DNA of 64,000 nucleotides, from the NCBI RefSeq assembly GCF_900108055.1, contig NZ_FNWJ01000001.1:868001-932000 (forward strand). The letters are read 5' to 3'. A program made the translations under genes and the position numbers. Positions 2,937-51,509 of this stretch are shown piece by piece. How positions within the stretch are numbered: position 1 is the first letter of the stretch; every line of letters begins with the position of its first letter. The notes under the pieces were generated by a model. The model saw nothing but the letters and a program-made list of their open reading frames with translations, was not told the origin of the DNA and did not search any database. The DNA comes from Thermoleophilum album. GTDB taxonomy: Bacteria > Actinomycetota > Thermoleophilia > Solirubrobacterales > Thermoleophilaceae.

Positions 2937-4091
2937 TCACGAACGTGCGAGCACGCGATCGTAGACCTCGAGCGTCGCCTCCGCTGAGCGGCGCCAGGAG
3001 AAGCACGCCGCACGAGCTGGTCCGGCACCGTTGTCACCACGCTCCATCGCTACCTTGAGGGCTTCGGCGACTGCGCGCGGGTCGTGCGGATCGAAGTAGG
3101 TGGGGACGTCGCCACCGACCTCGCGCAGCACCGCGATGTCCGAACAGGCGACGGGCACCCCGCGCGCCATCGCCTCGAGGACCGGGAGGCCGAATCCCTC
3201 GGCGAGAGTTGGAAACGCCGCGCAACTGGCGAGCGACCAAAGTCCTTCCAGCGTCTCGTCGGTAACGGTTCCGGTGATGACAACGCGCGCGGCAACTTCG
3301 AGGTGCCTTGCAAGCTTCCGCAGCTCTTGCGCATAAGGCTCCGGTCGGCCGACGAGGACCAGTTGGACGTCGCTCGGCAAAAGCGGCAGCGAACGCACCA
3401 GCACCGCTTGGTTTTTGTGGGGGCGCAGCGCGGCGACGCAGAGCACAATCCGTTTGCCGGTCAGACCGTAACGCTCGCGCACCACAGCTTGCGCGTCCGG
3501 ACGGGTCGCTGGTTGCCGCCCGCAGCCGTGCGGTACGACCGTGATCCGCTCGGGCTCCAGTCGCAGGGTCGTGGCGATCTCTCTTGCCGCGGCTTGCGAG
3601 GGGACGATCACGGCGTTTGCGCGCTTCGCGACTCGCTCGATCACGAACCCCATGCCCCACGTACTGAGGGTTCCCATGGTCCGAATGCGTTTGAAGATCA
3701 AGTCGTGAACAGTGGCGACGCTGGCGAGGCCGGGGTCGAAGATCGGCCCCGTCCCAGCGAGATCGTGCAACAGATCGAAGCCGCGCCGCCGCACGAGAGC
3801 GGGTAGCAGCAGTTGCTCCGCCAGTTGCCGGCGCGTGCGGCGGAACTCTTCGGCGGGTAGGCGGACGATCTCCGCGAAGGCCTCGAAACCGTCAGCGCGC
3901 AGGGCCGTTGCGCCGCGCCCGGTCGTGACGATTGCGAATCGCCACTGAGGCCTGAGGTGCGCGAGCTCCGGCACCAACGCTCGCAGGTAGGTTTCGGTTC
4001 CACCGGACTGGCCCGGCGCTAGGAACAGGGCGTTCAGTGCGATTCGCCGCGGTTTCGCCACCGCCGACAGGCTAGGGCTGGGCGAGCGCAC
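2937..4091 (-). CDS. GT4 family glycosyltransferase (mannosyltransferase-like)
   Basis: 384 residues from GTG 4091. The mature-looking start is PRRIALNALFLAPGQSGGTETYLRALVPELA, with a glycine-rich loop typical of GT4 enzymes related to mannosyltransferases. Later motifs are TVHDLIF, VVPHGCG, LCVAALRPHKNQAVLV and E-x7-E (EGFGLPVLE) followed by AMARGVPVACSDIAVLREVGGD. An alternative GTG at 4061 would remove ten Ser/Pro-rich residues and leave a 68-bp divergent intergenic region, which may be the truer start. The adjacent divergent gene at 4130 encodes a clear paralogue with the same opening (IAINAAFLSQGGMGGLETYTREL), so the pair probably arose by duplication and inversion. Confidence 0.9.
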   Translation of the reverse strand: MRSPSPSLSAVAKPRRIALNALFLAPGQSGGTETYLRALVPELAHLRPQWRFAIVTTGRGATALRADGFEAFAEIVRLPAEEFRRTRRQLAEQLLLPALVRRRGFDLLHDLAGTGPIFDPGLASVATVHDLIFKRIRTMGTLSTWGMGFVIERVAKRANAVIVPSQAAAREIATTLRLEPERITVVPHGCGRQPATRPDAQAVVRERYGLTGKRIVLCVAALRPHKNQAVLVRSLPLLPSDVQLVLVGRPEPYAQELRKLARHLEVAARVVITGTVTDETLEGLWSLASCAAFPTLAEGFGLPVLEAMARGVPVACSDIAVLREVGGDVPTYFDPHDPRAVAEALKVAMERGDNGAGPARAACFSWRRSAEATLEVYDRVLARS

Positions 4092-4115
4092 CGCCGCACA
4101 GCGGCTCGCGATGGC

Positions 4116-4121
4116 TACGCT
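4116..4121 (+). promoter_or_regulatory. Candidate -10 element of a leaderless transcript
   Basis: TACGCT fits TANNNT and ends 8 bases before the GTG start at 4130. No Shine-Dalgarno sequence is present there. The same spacing is seen before rpsL, rplK, folE2 and the epimerase gene. No -35 is evident. Confidence 0.35.
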
Positions 4122-4129
4122 GCCCCGCC

Positions 4130-5320
4130 GTGCGCATCGCGATCAACGCGGCGTTCTTGTCGCAAGGCGGCATGGGCGGGCTCGAGACGTACACGCGCGA
4201 GCTTGTGGCGGCGCTGTCGCGGAGGCGCGACATCGAGCTTGTGCTGTTGCTATCCAGCACCTTGGCGGATGATCGGCTCGCGCGCATGGCCGAGGTTGCT
4301 CTGCTGCCCCTCGATCCCCGCCGACGGCTTGACTGGGTGCGCGCGGATCAGCTGGAGGTGCCGCGGCTCGCGCACCGTCTCGGCGTCGAACTCGTGCACA
4401 GCCTGGCTTCCACTGGACCTACGTGGGGTCGGGTGAGGCGGGTGGTGACGGTCCATGACCTCGCCTTCGCGCGCTTTCCGCGCACCCATTTTGGTCCGCG
4501 GGCGCTAGGAATGGCGCTGCTCGTGCCGGCTGCTGCGAGGACCGCTGCGCGCGTGATCGTGCCAAGCAGAGCGACCCGCGACGAGGTCGTACGCCTGCTG
4601 CGCGTACCAAGCGAGCGCGTCGACGTCGTGCCCGAGGGCCTCGGACAAGTTCCGGTTACCGCGACCAGCTCGCCGGCGGAAGCCCTGAGCAAGAGCGCGC
4701 CGGGAGAGCGATCCTCGGCGAGCACTCACGATCTACCCAGCGCGCTAAGCGCGCGGCTCGCTGCTGCACCGCGCCCGGTTGCGCTGTCGGTTTCGGCGAA
4801 GCGTCCTCACAAGAACCTGGAGCGCTTGATTCGCGCCATTGCGCTGATCCCTCGTGAGCGTCGGCCGCTGCTCGTGCTACCGGGCTATCCGACTCCATAC
4901 GAGCGCGAGCTCGAGCAGCTCGCCGAACGAACGGGAATCGGCGACCACGTTGTGTTTCTGGGCTGGCTGCCGCCGGAGCAGCTCGAGGCCGTCTATCGGA
5001 TTGCCTGGCTGTTCGTCTTCCCGTCGCTCTACGAGGGCTTCGGTCTGCCGGTACTCGAGGCGATGGCGCGCGGGGTACCGGTAGCGACGTCGGACCGCGC
5101 CAGCTTGCCCGAGGTTGCCGGCCCTGCGGCGCTCTATTTCGATCCCCTCAGCGAAGCGTCGATCGCGGCGTCGATCGAGCGCCTTCTGTTCGACCGCGAG
5201 CTAGCCGCTGCGTTGCGTCGGGCCGGCCTCGAGCGGGCTCGCCGGTTCAGCTGGGATGCGTGCGCCGAGGCGACGGTCGCGAGCTATCGGGCTGCGCTCG
5301 CCGAAACCCCGGCAACGTAG
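4130..5320 (+). CDS. GT4 family glycosyltransferase (mannosyltransferase-like)
   Basis: 396 residues from GTG 4130, opening RIAINAAFLSQGGMGGLETYTRELVAAL. It has the GT4 order: N-terminal Rossmann lobe, VVTVHDLAFARFP, VIVPSRATRDEVVR, then VALSVSAKRPHKNLERL, E-x7-E (EGFGLPVLE), and GVPVATSDRASLPEVAGPAALYFDP. It closely resembles the divergently transcribed gene ending at 2937. There is no Shine-Dalgarno; a TACGCT element 8 bases upstream suggests a leaderless mRNA. The last 37 bases overlap the convergent methyltransferase gene. A short acidic/Ser-rich insertion (SSPAEALSKSAPGERSS) sits between the lobes. Donor and acceptor are not determinable from sequence. Confidence 0.9.
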   Translation: MRIAINAAFLSQGGMGGLETYTRELVAALSRRRDIELVLLLSSTLADDRLARMAEVALLPLDPRRRLDWVRADQLEVPRLAHRLGVELVHSLASTGPTWGRVRRVVTVHDLAFARFPRTHFGPRALGMALLVPAAARTAARVIVPSRATRDEVVRLLRVPSERVDVVPEGLGQVPVTATSSPAEALSKSAPGERSSASTHDLPSALSARLAAAPRPVALSVSAKRPHKNLERLIRAIALIPRERRPLLVLPGYPTPYERELEQLAERTGIGDHVVFLGWLPPEQLEAVYRIAWLFVFPSLYEGFGLPVLEAMARGVPVATSDRASLPEVAGPAALYFDPLSEASIAASIERLLFDRELAAALRRAGLERARRFSWDACAEATVASYRAALAETPAT

Positions 5321-44863: not shown

Positions 44864-44867
<4 letters not shown>

Positions 44868-45349
44868 CTGCTCGCGAGAGAGCGGGCCCACGACAGCAAG
44901 CGCGCCGCGTGGTCGCGCGTAAGGCCGCGCGAGGGCTCGGTTTCGACGAGCAAGGTTGGCGCGCCTCGCCGACGCGCCCACTGGTGGCACGACTCGTCGA
45001 GATTGTCATCGATCCATGCCAGCGGTCTGGAGCCCGCGAAGCGCTCGATCGCAGGCAGTTTCCAGTGTGCACCCCCCGGTTTTGGAGTCCCGTCGAAACG
45101 AACGACCGGCAGCTCCGGCCAAGGCAGCCCGAGCAATCGTGGCAAGTAGTCGTTTGCGCGCTCTTCCCAGCCCGTGGCCCACACCAGCTCGAAAGCTCCA
45201 GCGAGCCGCACGAGCTCGCGTCCGGCGGCCAGTGACAGGCAGTGGGGAACCCCATCAACGTATGCCCATTCGACCGCTGCGGGAACGTCGCTGTCGAAAC
45301 CGAAGAGGCTGATCACGCCATCGACGTCGACAAACAGGAGTGGTCGCAT
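44864..45349 (-). CDS. HAD-like hydrolase (HAD_SAK-type)
   Basis: 161 residues from ATG 45349 with GAGAGG 5 bases upstream. HAD motif I is [13 protein letters not shown] (DxDG) and a later motif is [12 protein letters not shown]. The block [37 protein letters not shown] resembles the HAD domain of 'Swiss army knife' RNA-repair proteins, which also occurs as stand-alone small proteins in actinobacteria. It may be a phosphatase of unknown substrate. It lies antisense between rpoC and a DMT transporter gene, interrupting the usual rpoC-rpsL neighbourhood. Confidence 0.8.
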
Positions 45350-47322: not shown

Positions 47323-48006
47323 TCAGCCCGAGCTTTCCTGCGCGCGCAACTCCCTTTCGCTTGTTCGAGCGGGGTCGGCTTGCGCTCTTGACGGCCGTCG
47401 TGCCGAGCTTCCTTTGCGCCGGTTTCTCGTGAACGTCGCGACGCCGAGTGCGAGGATCGCGAGAGCGGCCACTAGTTCGATGTAGAAGCCGATACCAGCC
47501 TTACCGACAGCGCCCTCATAGTCGCTTCCGATAGCTCCGGTGCGGGTGGTCTCGGGCAGATCGATTAGGAGGGTAAGCAGGAGGGCGACTAGGCCCAGCG
47601 CTCCCATGGCAACCGACGCCGGGAGGCTCCGCCCAACGGTCGCGCCGAGGGCCATCACGGCGGCTACCAGCGCGATCAGCAGCATCGCTCCGGCGTGTTG
47701 CTCGAAGCCGCTCACGACACACCGGTCCGCAAGCGCGGGATTGGCGTCGTTGATGACCTCGCAAGAACCCGCGGCGAGCTCGACGCGGGCGACCGGAAGC
47801 GCCTCCGACACGGCCAGCATGGCGCTTGCGAGCGTCGCCGCGGCGAGCAGCGCCGCCCCGGCCGGATCACGACGCGCAAACCGCGCCGTGCGCTTGAGGA
47901 GAGCCCTCGGCCCTCTGCTACCATCCCCTGCCGTTCCGGCGGAGGACGCCCTCTCGATGTGCGTGTCTTCCGTCAGCTGGTTCTCCGGAGTCCGACCCGA
48001 CGACAT
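47323..48006 (-). CDS. Uncharacterised four-helix membrane protein
   Basis: 227 residues from ATG 48006. A disordered N-terminus (1-35) leads to four hydrophobic segments: AGAALLAAATLASAMLAVSEALP (about 49-71), AGAMLLIALVAAVMALGATVG (about 105-125), SVAMGALGLVALLLTLLIDLP (about 130-150) and GFYIELVAALAILALGVATF (about 172-191). The first outer loop has two cysteines (GSCEVINDANPALADRCVV) that could form a disulphide. The C-terminus is basic and Ser/Arg-rich. I recognise no family. It lies antisense between rpsG and fusA, splitting the str operon, and its first codons overlap the presumed fusA leader on the other strand. Confidence 0.75.
   Translation of the reverse strand: MSSGRTPENQLTEDTHIERASSAGTAGDGSRGPRALLKRTARFARRDPAGAALLAAATLASAMLAVSEALPVARVELAAGSCEVINDANPALADRCVVSGFEQHAGAMLLIALVAAVMALGATVGRSLPASVAMGALGLVALLLTLLIDLPETTRTGAIGSDYEGAVGKAGIGFYIELVAALAILALGVATFTRNRRKGSSARRPSRAQADPARTSERELRAQESSG
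47894..47924 (+). promoter_or_regulatory. Weak candidate promoter for fusA
   Basis: TTGAGG (47894-47899), 19 bases, TACCAT (47919-47924). It would produce a leader of about 180 bases that includes the terminator-like hairpin at 48058. Offered only because some promoter must lie upstream of that hairpin. Confidence 0.2.
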
Positions 48007-48057
48007 GGAGTCGCTGCCGAGATAGAACGTAACCGGGCAAGCGAACTTGTCGGTGTC

Positions 48058-48082
48058 GGGCCCGGGTGACCGGGCCCTTTTT
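48058..48082 (+). terminator. Intrinsic terminator (probable attenuator) in the fusA leader
   Basis: GGGCCCGG (48058-48065), loop GTGA, CCGGGCCC (48070-48077), then five T. This is a textbook rho-independent terminator in the plus direction, ending 32 bases before the fusA ATG. It is too close to fusA to end an unrelated upstream transcript and leaves little room for a promoter after it. CCCGACGACA at 47995-48004 can pair with TGTCGGTGTCGGG (48048-48060), which includes the first GGG of the terminator stem, so an alternative fold is possible. Confidence 0.75.
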
Positions 48083-48114
48083 CTGCTCCGCTACCCGAAG
48101 TCGATCGAGAAACC

Positions 48115-50247
<2,133 letters not shown>

Positions 50248-50324: not shown

Positions 50325-51509
<1,185 letters not shown>

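What the first reader, a model, noticed from the sequence alone, without database searches (positions are those of the whole stretch)
47995..48114. Terminator hairpin 32 bases before fusA: likely attenuation of elongation factor G
GGGCCCGG-GTGA-CCGGGCCC followed by five T (48058-48082) is the strongest intrinsic terminator shape in the window, points toward fusA, and ends 32 bases before its ATG. There is hardly room for a promoter after it, so most fusA transcripts probably cross it. CCCGACGACA (47995-48004) can pair with the segment TGTCGGTGTCGGG that overlaps the 5' arm, giving a possible antiterminator. A tiny ORF (ATG at 48005, MESLPR) lies between the two. The arrangement suggests conditional readthrough controlling translation capacity; the trigger is unknown.
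Basis: partly seen in the sequence, partly recalled or inferred. Interest (0 to 1): 0.65.

Follow-up and report, generated by a model that had tools for sequence, protein, structure and literature searches.

The report
uORF-coupled attenuator before elongation factor genes
In one order of soil actinobacteria (Solirubrobacterales), the gene for elongation factor G starts with a conserved six-codon mini-gene followed by a transcription stop signal, so ribosomes working on the mini-gene probably decide whether more elongation factor is made; this is predicted from sequence and not yet tested.

Summary
The hairpin at 48058-48077 plus T5 is the strongest terminator-like site in the window (-19.2 kcal/mol; next best -11.6) and occurs once in the genome. 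It is not private to this genome: a profile of the leader finds it once per genome in about 115 relatives of one order, and only there. Across 109 distinct leaders the order is fixed: an extended -10 box (107/109), a 5-8 codon uORF (consensus M-E-T/S-x-T/S-x-stop), a 27-43 nt spacer, a terminator, then fusA. No such -10 box lies between terminator and fusA (0/100). The 'tiny ORF' is therefore the best conserved part of the system. In four genomes the best EF-G gene is a divergent one elsewhere and the leader stands before tuf, so it is not EF-G-specific. Best reading: ribosome-mediated transcription attenuation of the fusA-tuf operon that senses ribosome transit, not an amino acid. Sign and trigger are untested. 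A new variant of a known kind.

The parts
47916..47924 (+). extended -10 promoter element TGCTACCAT of the fusA leader (start of transcription about 47931-47932, inferred)
   Evidence: TGNTANN(N)T found 35-125 nt before the uORF in 107/109 leaders, 1/109 on the opposite strand, 0/100 between terminator and fusA; position
47985..48001 (+).
   Evidence: fold; a counterpart in congener L112; not general in other families
48005..48025 (+). uORF ATG GAG TCG CTG CCG AGA TAG (MESLPR); last sense codon AGA is rare (2 of 321 Arg codons in core genes)
   Evidence: in-frame uORF of 5-8 codons in 109 distinct leaders, consensus M-E-T/S-x-T/S-T/R/A/N-stop; codon use
48033..48038 (+). spacer element CCGGGC, 7 nt after the uORF stop; can pair with GCCCGG (48060-48065) as a second antiterminator
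   Evidence: alignments A1 and A3; arm pairing above shuffles in f1, f3, g39
48049..48065 (+). 3' strand of the upstream antiterminator, overlapping the whole 5' arm of the terminator
48058..48077 (+). intrinsic terminator hairpin, 8 bp, GTGA loop
   Evidence: hairpin found in all 109 leaders retained (the extraction required one)
48078..48086 (+). T tract and following CTGC; T-run plus TGC nearly invariant across relatives, role unknown
48115..50247 (+). fusA, elongation factor G
   Evidence: Pfam GTP_EFTU, EFG_III, EFG_IV, EFG_C
50325..51509 (+). tuf, elongation factor Tu, second gene behind the leader (operon inferred)
   Evidence: ORF; the leader stands directly before tuf in four relatives

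Best explanation
A ribosome-mediated transcription attenuator of the fusA-tuf operon. Transcription starts near 47932. A ribosome translates the six-codon uORF (48005-48025) while RNA polymerase makes the next 50 nt. If the ribosome reaches the end of the uORF in time, its footprint keeps the RNA just after the stop codon (CCGGGC here) from pairing, the terminator 48058-48082 folds and transcription stops before fusA. If ribosomes are absent or slow (low elongation factor, few ribosomes, inhibited translation), an antiterminator captures the terminator's 5' arm and fusA and tuf are transcribed. The uORF would thus sense ribosome transit rather than one amino acid, giving homeostatic feedback on elongation capacity. 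Shown by sequence: promoter, uORF, terminator, their order and conservation. Inferred: translation of the uORF, control of readthrough, direction of the response, operon with tuf.
For: Leader found blind by a sequence profile in 119 of 399 genomes of the class, nearly all in one order, one per genome, next to fusA or tuf. 109 distinct leaders: uORF in frame, 5-8 codons (length changes of whole codons), stops TAG, TAA and TGA, stop-to-terminator distance 27-43 nt. Thr/Ser at codons 3 and 5 exceed column-wise permutation, 68 vs 61.6+-1.9 and 53 vs 43.6+-2.3. Promoter only upstream of the uORF. Terminator probability in silico rises with a ribosome at the uORF stop versus none in all six groups (f1 0.52 to 0.81, f3 0.61 to 0.79, f4 0.13 to 0.69, g39 0.61 to 0.90, g40 0.46 to 0.84, f2o 0.71 to 0.87), the logic reported for M. 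tuberculosis ilvB1 (PMC13236596). In other families of the class fusA lies 17-393 nt after rpsG and the sampled upstream sequence shows no such leader.
Against: No expression data. Blocking 30 nt of RNA raises terminator probability partly by removing competitors in general; only in f1, f3 and f4 is the stop position clearly more effective than the start position. The window itself is an outlier: its upstream stem gives P(terminator) 0 with no ribosome, 1.0 with a ribosome on AUG, and 0 with a ribosome at the stop, which would reverse the sign. In f2o the spacer folds on itself and avoids the terminator arm. Only 22/109 uORFs have a Shine-Dalgarno-like motif (fusA itself only 11). Genera g24 and g25 keep promoter and terminator but have lost the uORF, g32 has lost both.
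Confidence: 0.6

Rival explanations
1. Same parts, opposite sign, and a recycling sensor: a ribosome waiting at the uORF stop for EF-G/RRF-driven recycling leaves the upstream strand (47985-48001) free, so the long antiterminator forms and fusA is read through; ribosomes held on the start codon cause termination.
For: Exactly what the fold of the window predicts: P(terminator) 0 / 1.0 / 0 for no ribosome / AUG / stop. A rare A-ending codon before the stop (ACA, AGA) is common and could lengthen the dwell there. EF-G is a recycling factor (established knowledge).
Against: The upstream stem is not general; upstream pairing is at or below shuffles in the other families. Persistence before tuf in four genomes does not fit an EF-G-only sensor.
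Confidence: 0.15
2. A fixed partial terminator that merely sets a low constant ratio of leader to fusA mRNA; the uORF is translated but not regulatory, or only shields the leader.
For: Genera g24 and g25 keep promoter and terminator without a uORF. Antiterminators are lineage-specific.
Against: A uORF kept in frame with constant spacing in 109 distinct leaders, including those before tuf, would be unexpected for a passive element.
Confidence: 0.14
3. A classical amino-acid leader: the uORF senses charged tRNA-Thr (or Ser).
For: Thr is 33% and Ser 16% of uORF residues after the start, versus 9% Thr+Ser in core genes.
Against: Seven of the distinct peptides have no Thr, including the window's own MESLPR; Thr and Ser codons swap freely; the target is not an amino-acid gene.
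Confidence: 0.04
4. A protein- or metabolite-binding leader (for example a ribosomal protein S7/S12-type leader or riboswitch), the short ORF being an RNA motif.
For: Attenuators without a uORF were predicted before rpsL and before streptococcal fusA (PMC2965389). A GCTCA-type element recurs in the 5' part of the leader.
Against: No Rfam family reaches its threshold here. uORF codons vary like codons (TCN/AGC, TAG/TAA/TGA, whole-codon length changes) and no structure conserved across all families was found apart from the terminator.
Confidence: 0.06

Closest known systems
Ribosome-mediated transcription attenuation by amino-acid leader peptides (trp, his; M. tuberculosis ilvB1, PMC13236596)
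   Same: short uORF, spacer, intrinsic terminator, ribosome at the stop predicted to favour termination
   Different: uORF of only six codons, no run of one amino acid's codons, target is translation elongation factors
Ribosome-stalling uORF attenuators of stress genes (whiB7/wblC, B. subtilis vmlR PMC9226507; the E. coli topAI uORF toiL PMC12121999 acts on translation and Rho)
   Same: very short uORF that would read ribosome state rather than an amino acid
   Different: those drive antibiotic-response or toxin-antitoxin genes; here the target is the housekeeping operon fusA-tuf
uORFC-6-1 motif before hflX in Bacillales (PMC8632094)
   Same: conserved uORF plus RNA structure before a ribosome-associated GTPase gene
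   Different: Arg-Leu-Arg peptide, different phylum, different gene
Predicted rpsL-leader type attenuator before fusA in streptococci (PMC2965389)
   Same: terminator between rpsG and fusA with a proposed antiterminator
   Different: no uORF described in the passages read; proposed S7 control; no sequence relationship was tested

Membership tests
ribosome-mediated transcription attenuator | conserved short ORF between promoter and terminator | tested here: met
   109 distinct leaders
ribosome-mediated transcription attenuator | intrinsic terminator between uORF and structural gene | tested here: met
ribosome-mediated transcription attenuator | mutually exclusive antiterminator supported across relatives | tested here: inconclusive
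   spacer pairing above shuffles in f1, f3, g39 but not in f2o or g40; upstream pairing genus-level only; no clear column covariation
ribosome-mediated transcription attenuator | uORF is translated and controls readthrough | not testable with these tools
   needs ribosome profiling, Term-seq and mutants
amino-acid leader-peptide attenuator | run of codons for the regulated amino acid | tested here: not met
   MESLPR has no repeated residue; Thr absent in seven distinct peptides
Rfam-described leaders, including ribosomal-protein leaders and riboswitches | match at gathering score | tested here: not met
   only tRNAs in the window

The most novel reading that the evidence does not exclude
A general elongation-speed sensor: a six-codon mini-gene whose transit time by the ribosome sets transcription of EF-G and EF-Tu, giving direct homeostatic control of translation elongation capacity; it arose when fusA separated from rpsG in this order and survived at tuf even where native fusA seems to have been replaced.
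Probability: 0.4. Interest if true: 0.8.

Novelty: new variant of a known kind. Interest (0 to 1): 0.6.

Why it matters
How bacteria match elongation-factor supply to need outside the S7-controlled str operon is poorly known. A conserved uORF attenuator before fusA or tuf would be a direct, cis-acting readout of ribosome transit, testable with one reporter, and would add core translation factors to the targets of uORF attenuation. I found no description of it among the papers searched, a library that lacks most subscription journals.

Tried and rejected
Rfam and tRNA scans of the leader: nothing. sigma-70 consensus scan: no promoter found, because these promoters are extended -10 without a consensus -35. 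RNAalifold on the order-wide alignment: only 3 pairs; column covariation found no clear helix beyond the terminator, partly because the terminator GGGCCC is nearly invariant and the spacer aligns poorly between families. A universal antiterminator: rejected. A downstream promoter for fusA: no extended -10 in 100 gaps. Two weak profile hits elsewhere in the phylum proved chance (a tRNA with a terminator, and coding DNA).

Full report
What is there. The hairpin GGGCCCGG-GTGA-CCGGGCCC lies at 48058-48077 with T5 at 48078-48082, 32 nt before fusA (48115-50247). On both strands of the 64 kb window it is the strongest stem-plus-T site, -19.2 kcal/mol against -11.6 for the next, and the 20-mer is unique in the 2.2 Mb genome. 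Loose terminator criteria alone give no excess over shuffles.

Where it comes from. The nearest relatives form one order of the class; a named Solirubrobacterales MAG (L032) carries the same leader, so the organism is taken to be of that order (inference). In other families of the class fusA lies 17-393 nt after rpsG (18 sampled); in the window's order the gap is usually 286-2428 nt. Here it holds a minus-strand ORF.

Comparative test. Upstream regions of fusA from 40 genomes showed the same layout in most. A profile built from 30 of them (R1; essentially sequence, 3 pairs) was run over 399 genomes of the class: 119 had a hit at E <= 0.01, nearly all in this order, one per genome (one genome had a second, weak hit). 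Of the fetched hits almost all sit directly upstream of fusA where the downstream sequence could be read, except the tuf cases below and three weak hits. In 296 genomes across the phylum only order members plus two chance hits matched.

The conserved layout, 109 distinct leaders. (a) Extended -10 TGNTANN(N)T, 35-125 nt before the uORF, in 107/109; opposite-strand control 1/109; between terminator and fusA 0/100. (b) uORF, ATG in nearly all, 5-8 codons (six in most), stops TAG, TAA, TGA. (c) 27-43 nt spacer. (d) Terminator with 4-8 bp counted stem, mean -12.2 kcal/mol. (e) T tract followed by a nearly invariant TGC. The extraction required a short ORF and a terminator, so (b) and (d) are partly selected; the blind profile hits and the exceptions below are the check on this.

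The uORF as a coding unit. Consensus M-E-T/S-x-T/S-(T/R/A/N). Thr/Ser at codons 3 and 5 exceed what independent columns give (68 vs 61.6+-1.9; 53 vs 43.6+-2.3); Ser appears as both TCN and AGC; lengths change by whole codons; stop codons interchange. Related sequences are not independent, so these numbers overstate significance. The last sense codon is often a rare A-ending one (ACA 6 of 184 Thr codons, AGA 2 of 321 Arg codons in core genes of the window).

Alternative folds. In the window a 16-pair stem (47985-48001 with 48049-48065) covers the 5' arm of the terminator and wins in the equilibrium fold unless a ribosome sits on the uORF start. A counterpart occurs in the congener L112, but in other families the upstream region pairs with the arm no more than shuffles, in several less. 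A second pairing, CCGGGC 48033-48038 with GCCCGG 48060-48065, is favoured over shuffled spacers in f1 (0.68 vs 0.57), f3 (0.77 vs 0.59) and g39 (0.62 vs 0.53); in f2o and g40 the spacer instead folds on itself (z -1.24, -1.09). So switching structure is lineage-specific. A ribosome footprint at the uORF stop raises the computed terminator probability in all six groups, the logic described for M. tuberculosis ilvB1 (PMC13236596); the window itself deviates.

Natural variants. In four genomes of genus g31 the leader (uORFs MQTKGT, MQTTGT, MQTSGT, MQITGT) stands directly before tuf (order rpsL-rpsG-leader-tuf-rpsJ in G370); their best EF-G is a divergent gene elsewhere with no uORF or -10 box of this kind upstream (in one the contig leaves only 72 nt). 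A fifth member, G237, keeps fusA and the leader. Genera g24 and g25 keep promoter and terminator without a uORF; g32 keeps only the promoter; g37 has fusA close to rpsG and no leader.

Conclusion. The parts match a ribosome-mediated transcription attenuator of the fusA-tuf operon. The lack of a repeated amino acid and of Thr in the window's peptide argues against amino-acid sensing, and the tuf cases argue against an EF-G-only loop; transit of ribosomes over a tiny ORF is the simplest signal left. That the uORF is translated, that it controls readthrough, and in which direction, are inferences. Earlier work predicted a different attenuator before streptococcal fusA (PMC2965389) and a uORF before hflX (PMC8632094); no uORF attenuator of fusA or tuf was found in the papers searched.

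Noticed in passing
window 47323-48006 (-): Minus-strand ORF between rpsG and fusA with a weak, sub-threshold match to Trp_oprn_chp (PF09534); as listed it overlaps the fusA promoter and the uORF start, so its true start is probably lower or the two are divergently coupled.
   Followed up: no
L262 3489-3592 and tuf 3698-4879; L186, L207, L221, L223: In genus g31 the leader stands before tuf; the best EF-G of these genomes is a divergent gene elsewhere (AHVDSGKTT signature, about 61% identity) without the leader, which looks like gene replacement.
   Followed up: partly
window 48083-48086; A1, A2, A3: TGC directly after the T tract is nearly invariant across the order although the sequence beyond it is not; role unknown (RNA polymerase pausing is one thought).
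   Followed up: no
leaders, about 45 nt before the uORF: A GCTCA-type element recurs in the 5' part of the leader in f1 and f2, including one leader without a uORF (L261).
   Followed up: no
L258, L259, L261: Leaders that keep promoter and terminator but have lost the uORF.
   Followed up: partly
window 44864-45349 (-): Minus-strand gene after rpoC with a HAD_SAK_2 domain (PF18143, just above the curated cut-off).
   Followed up: no
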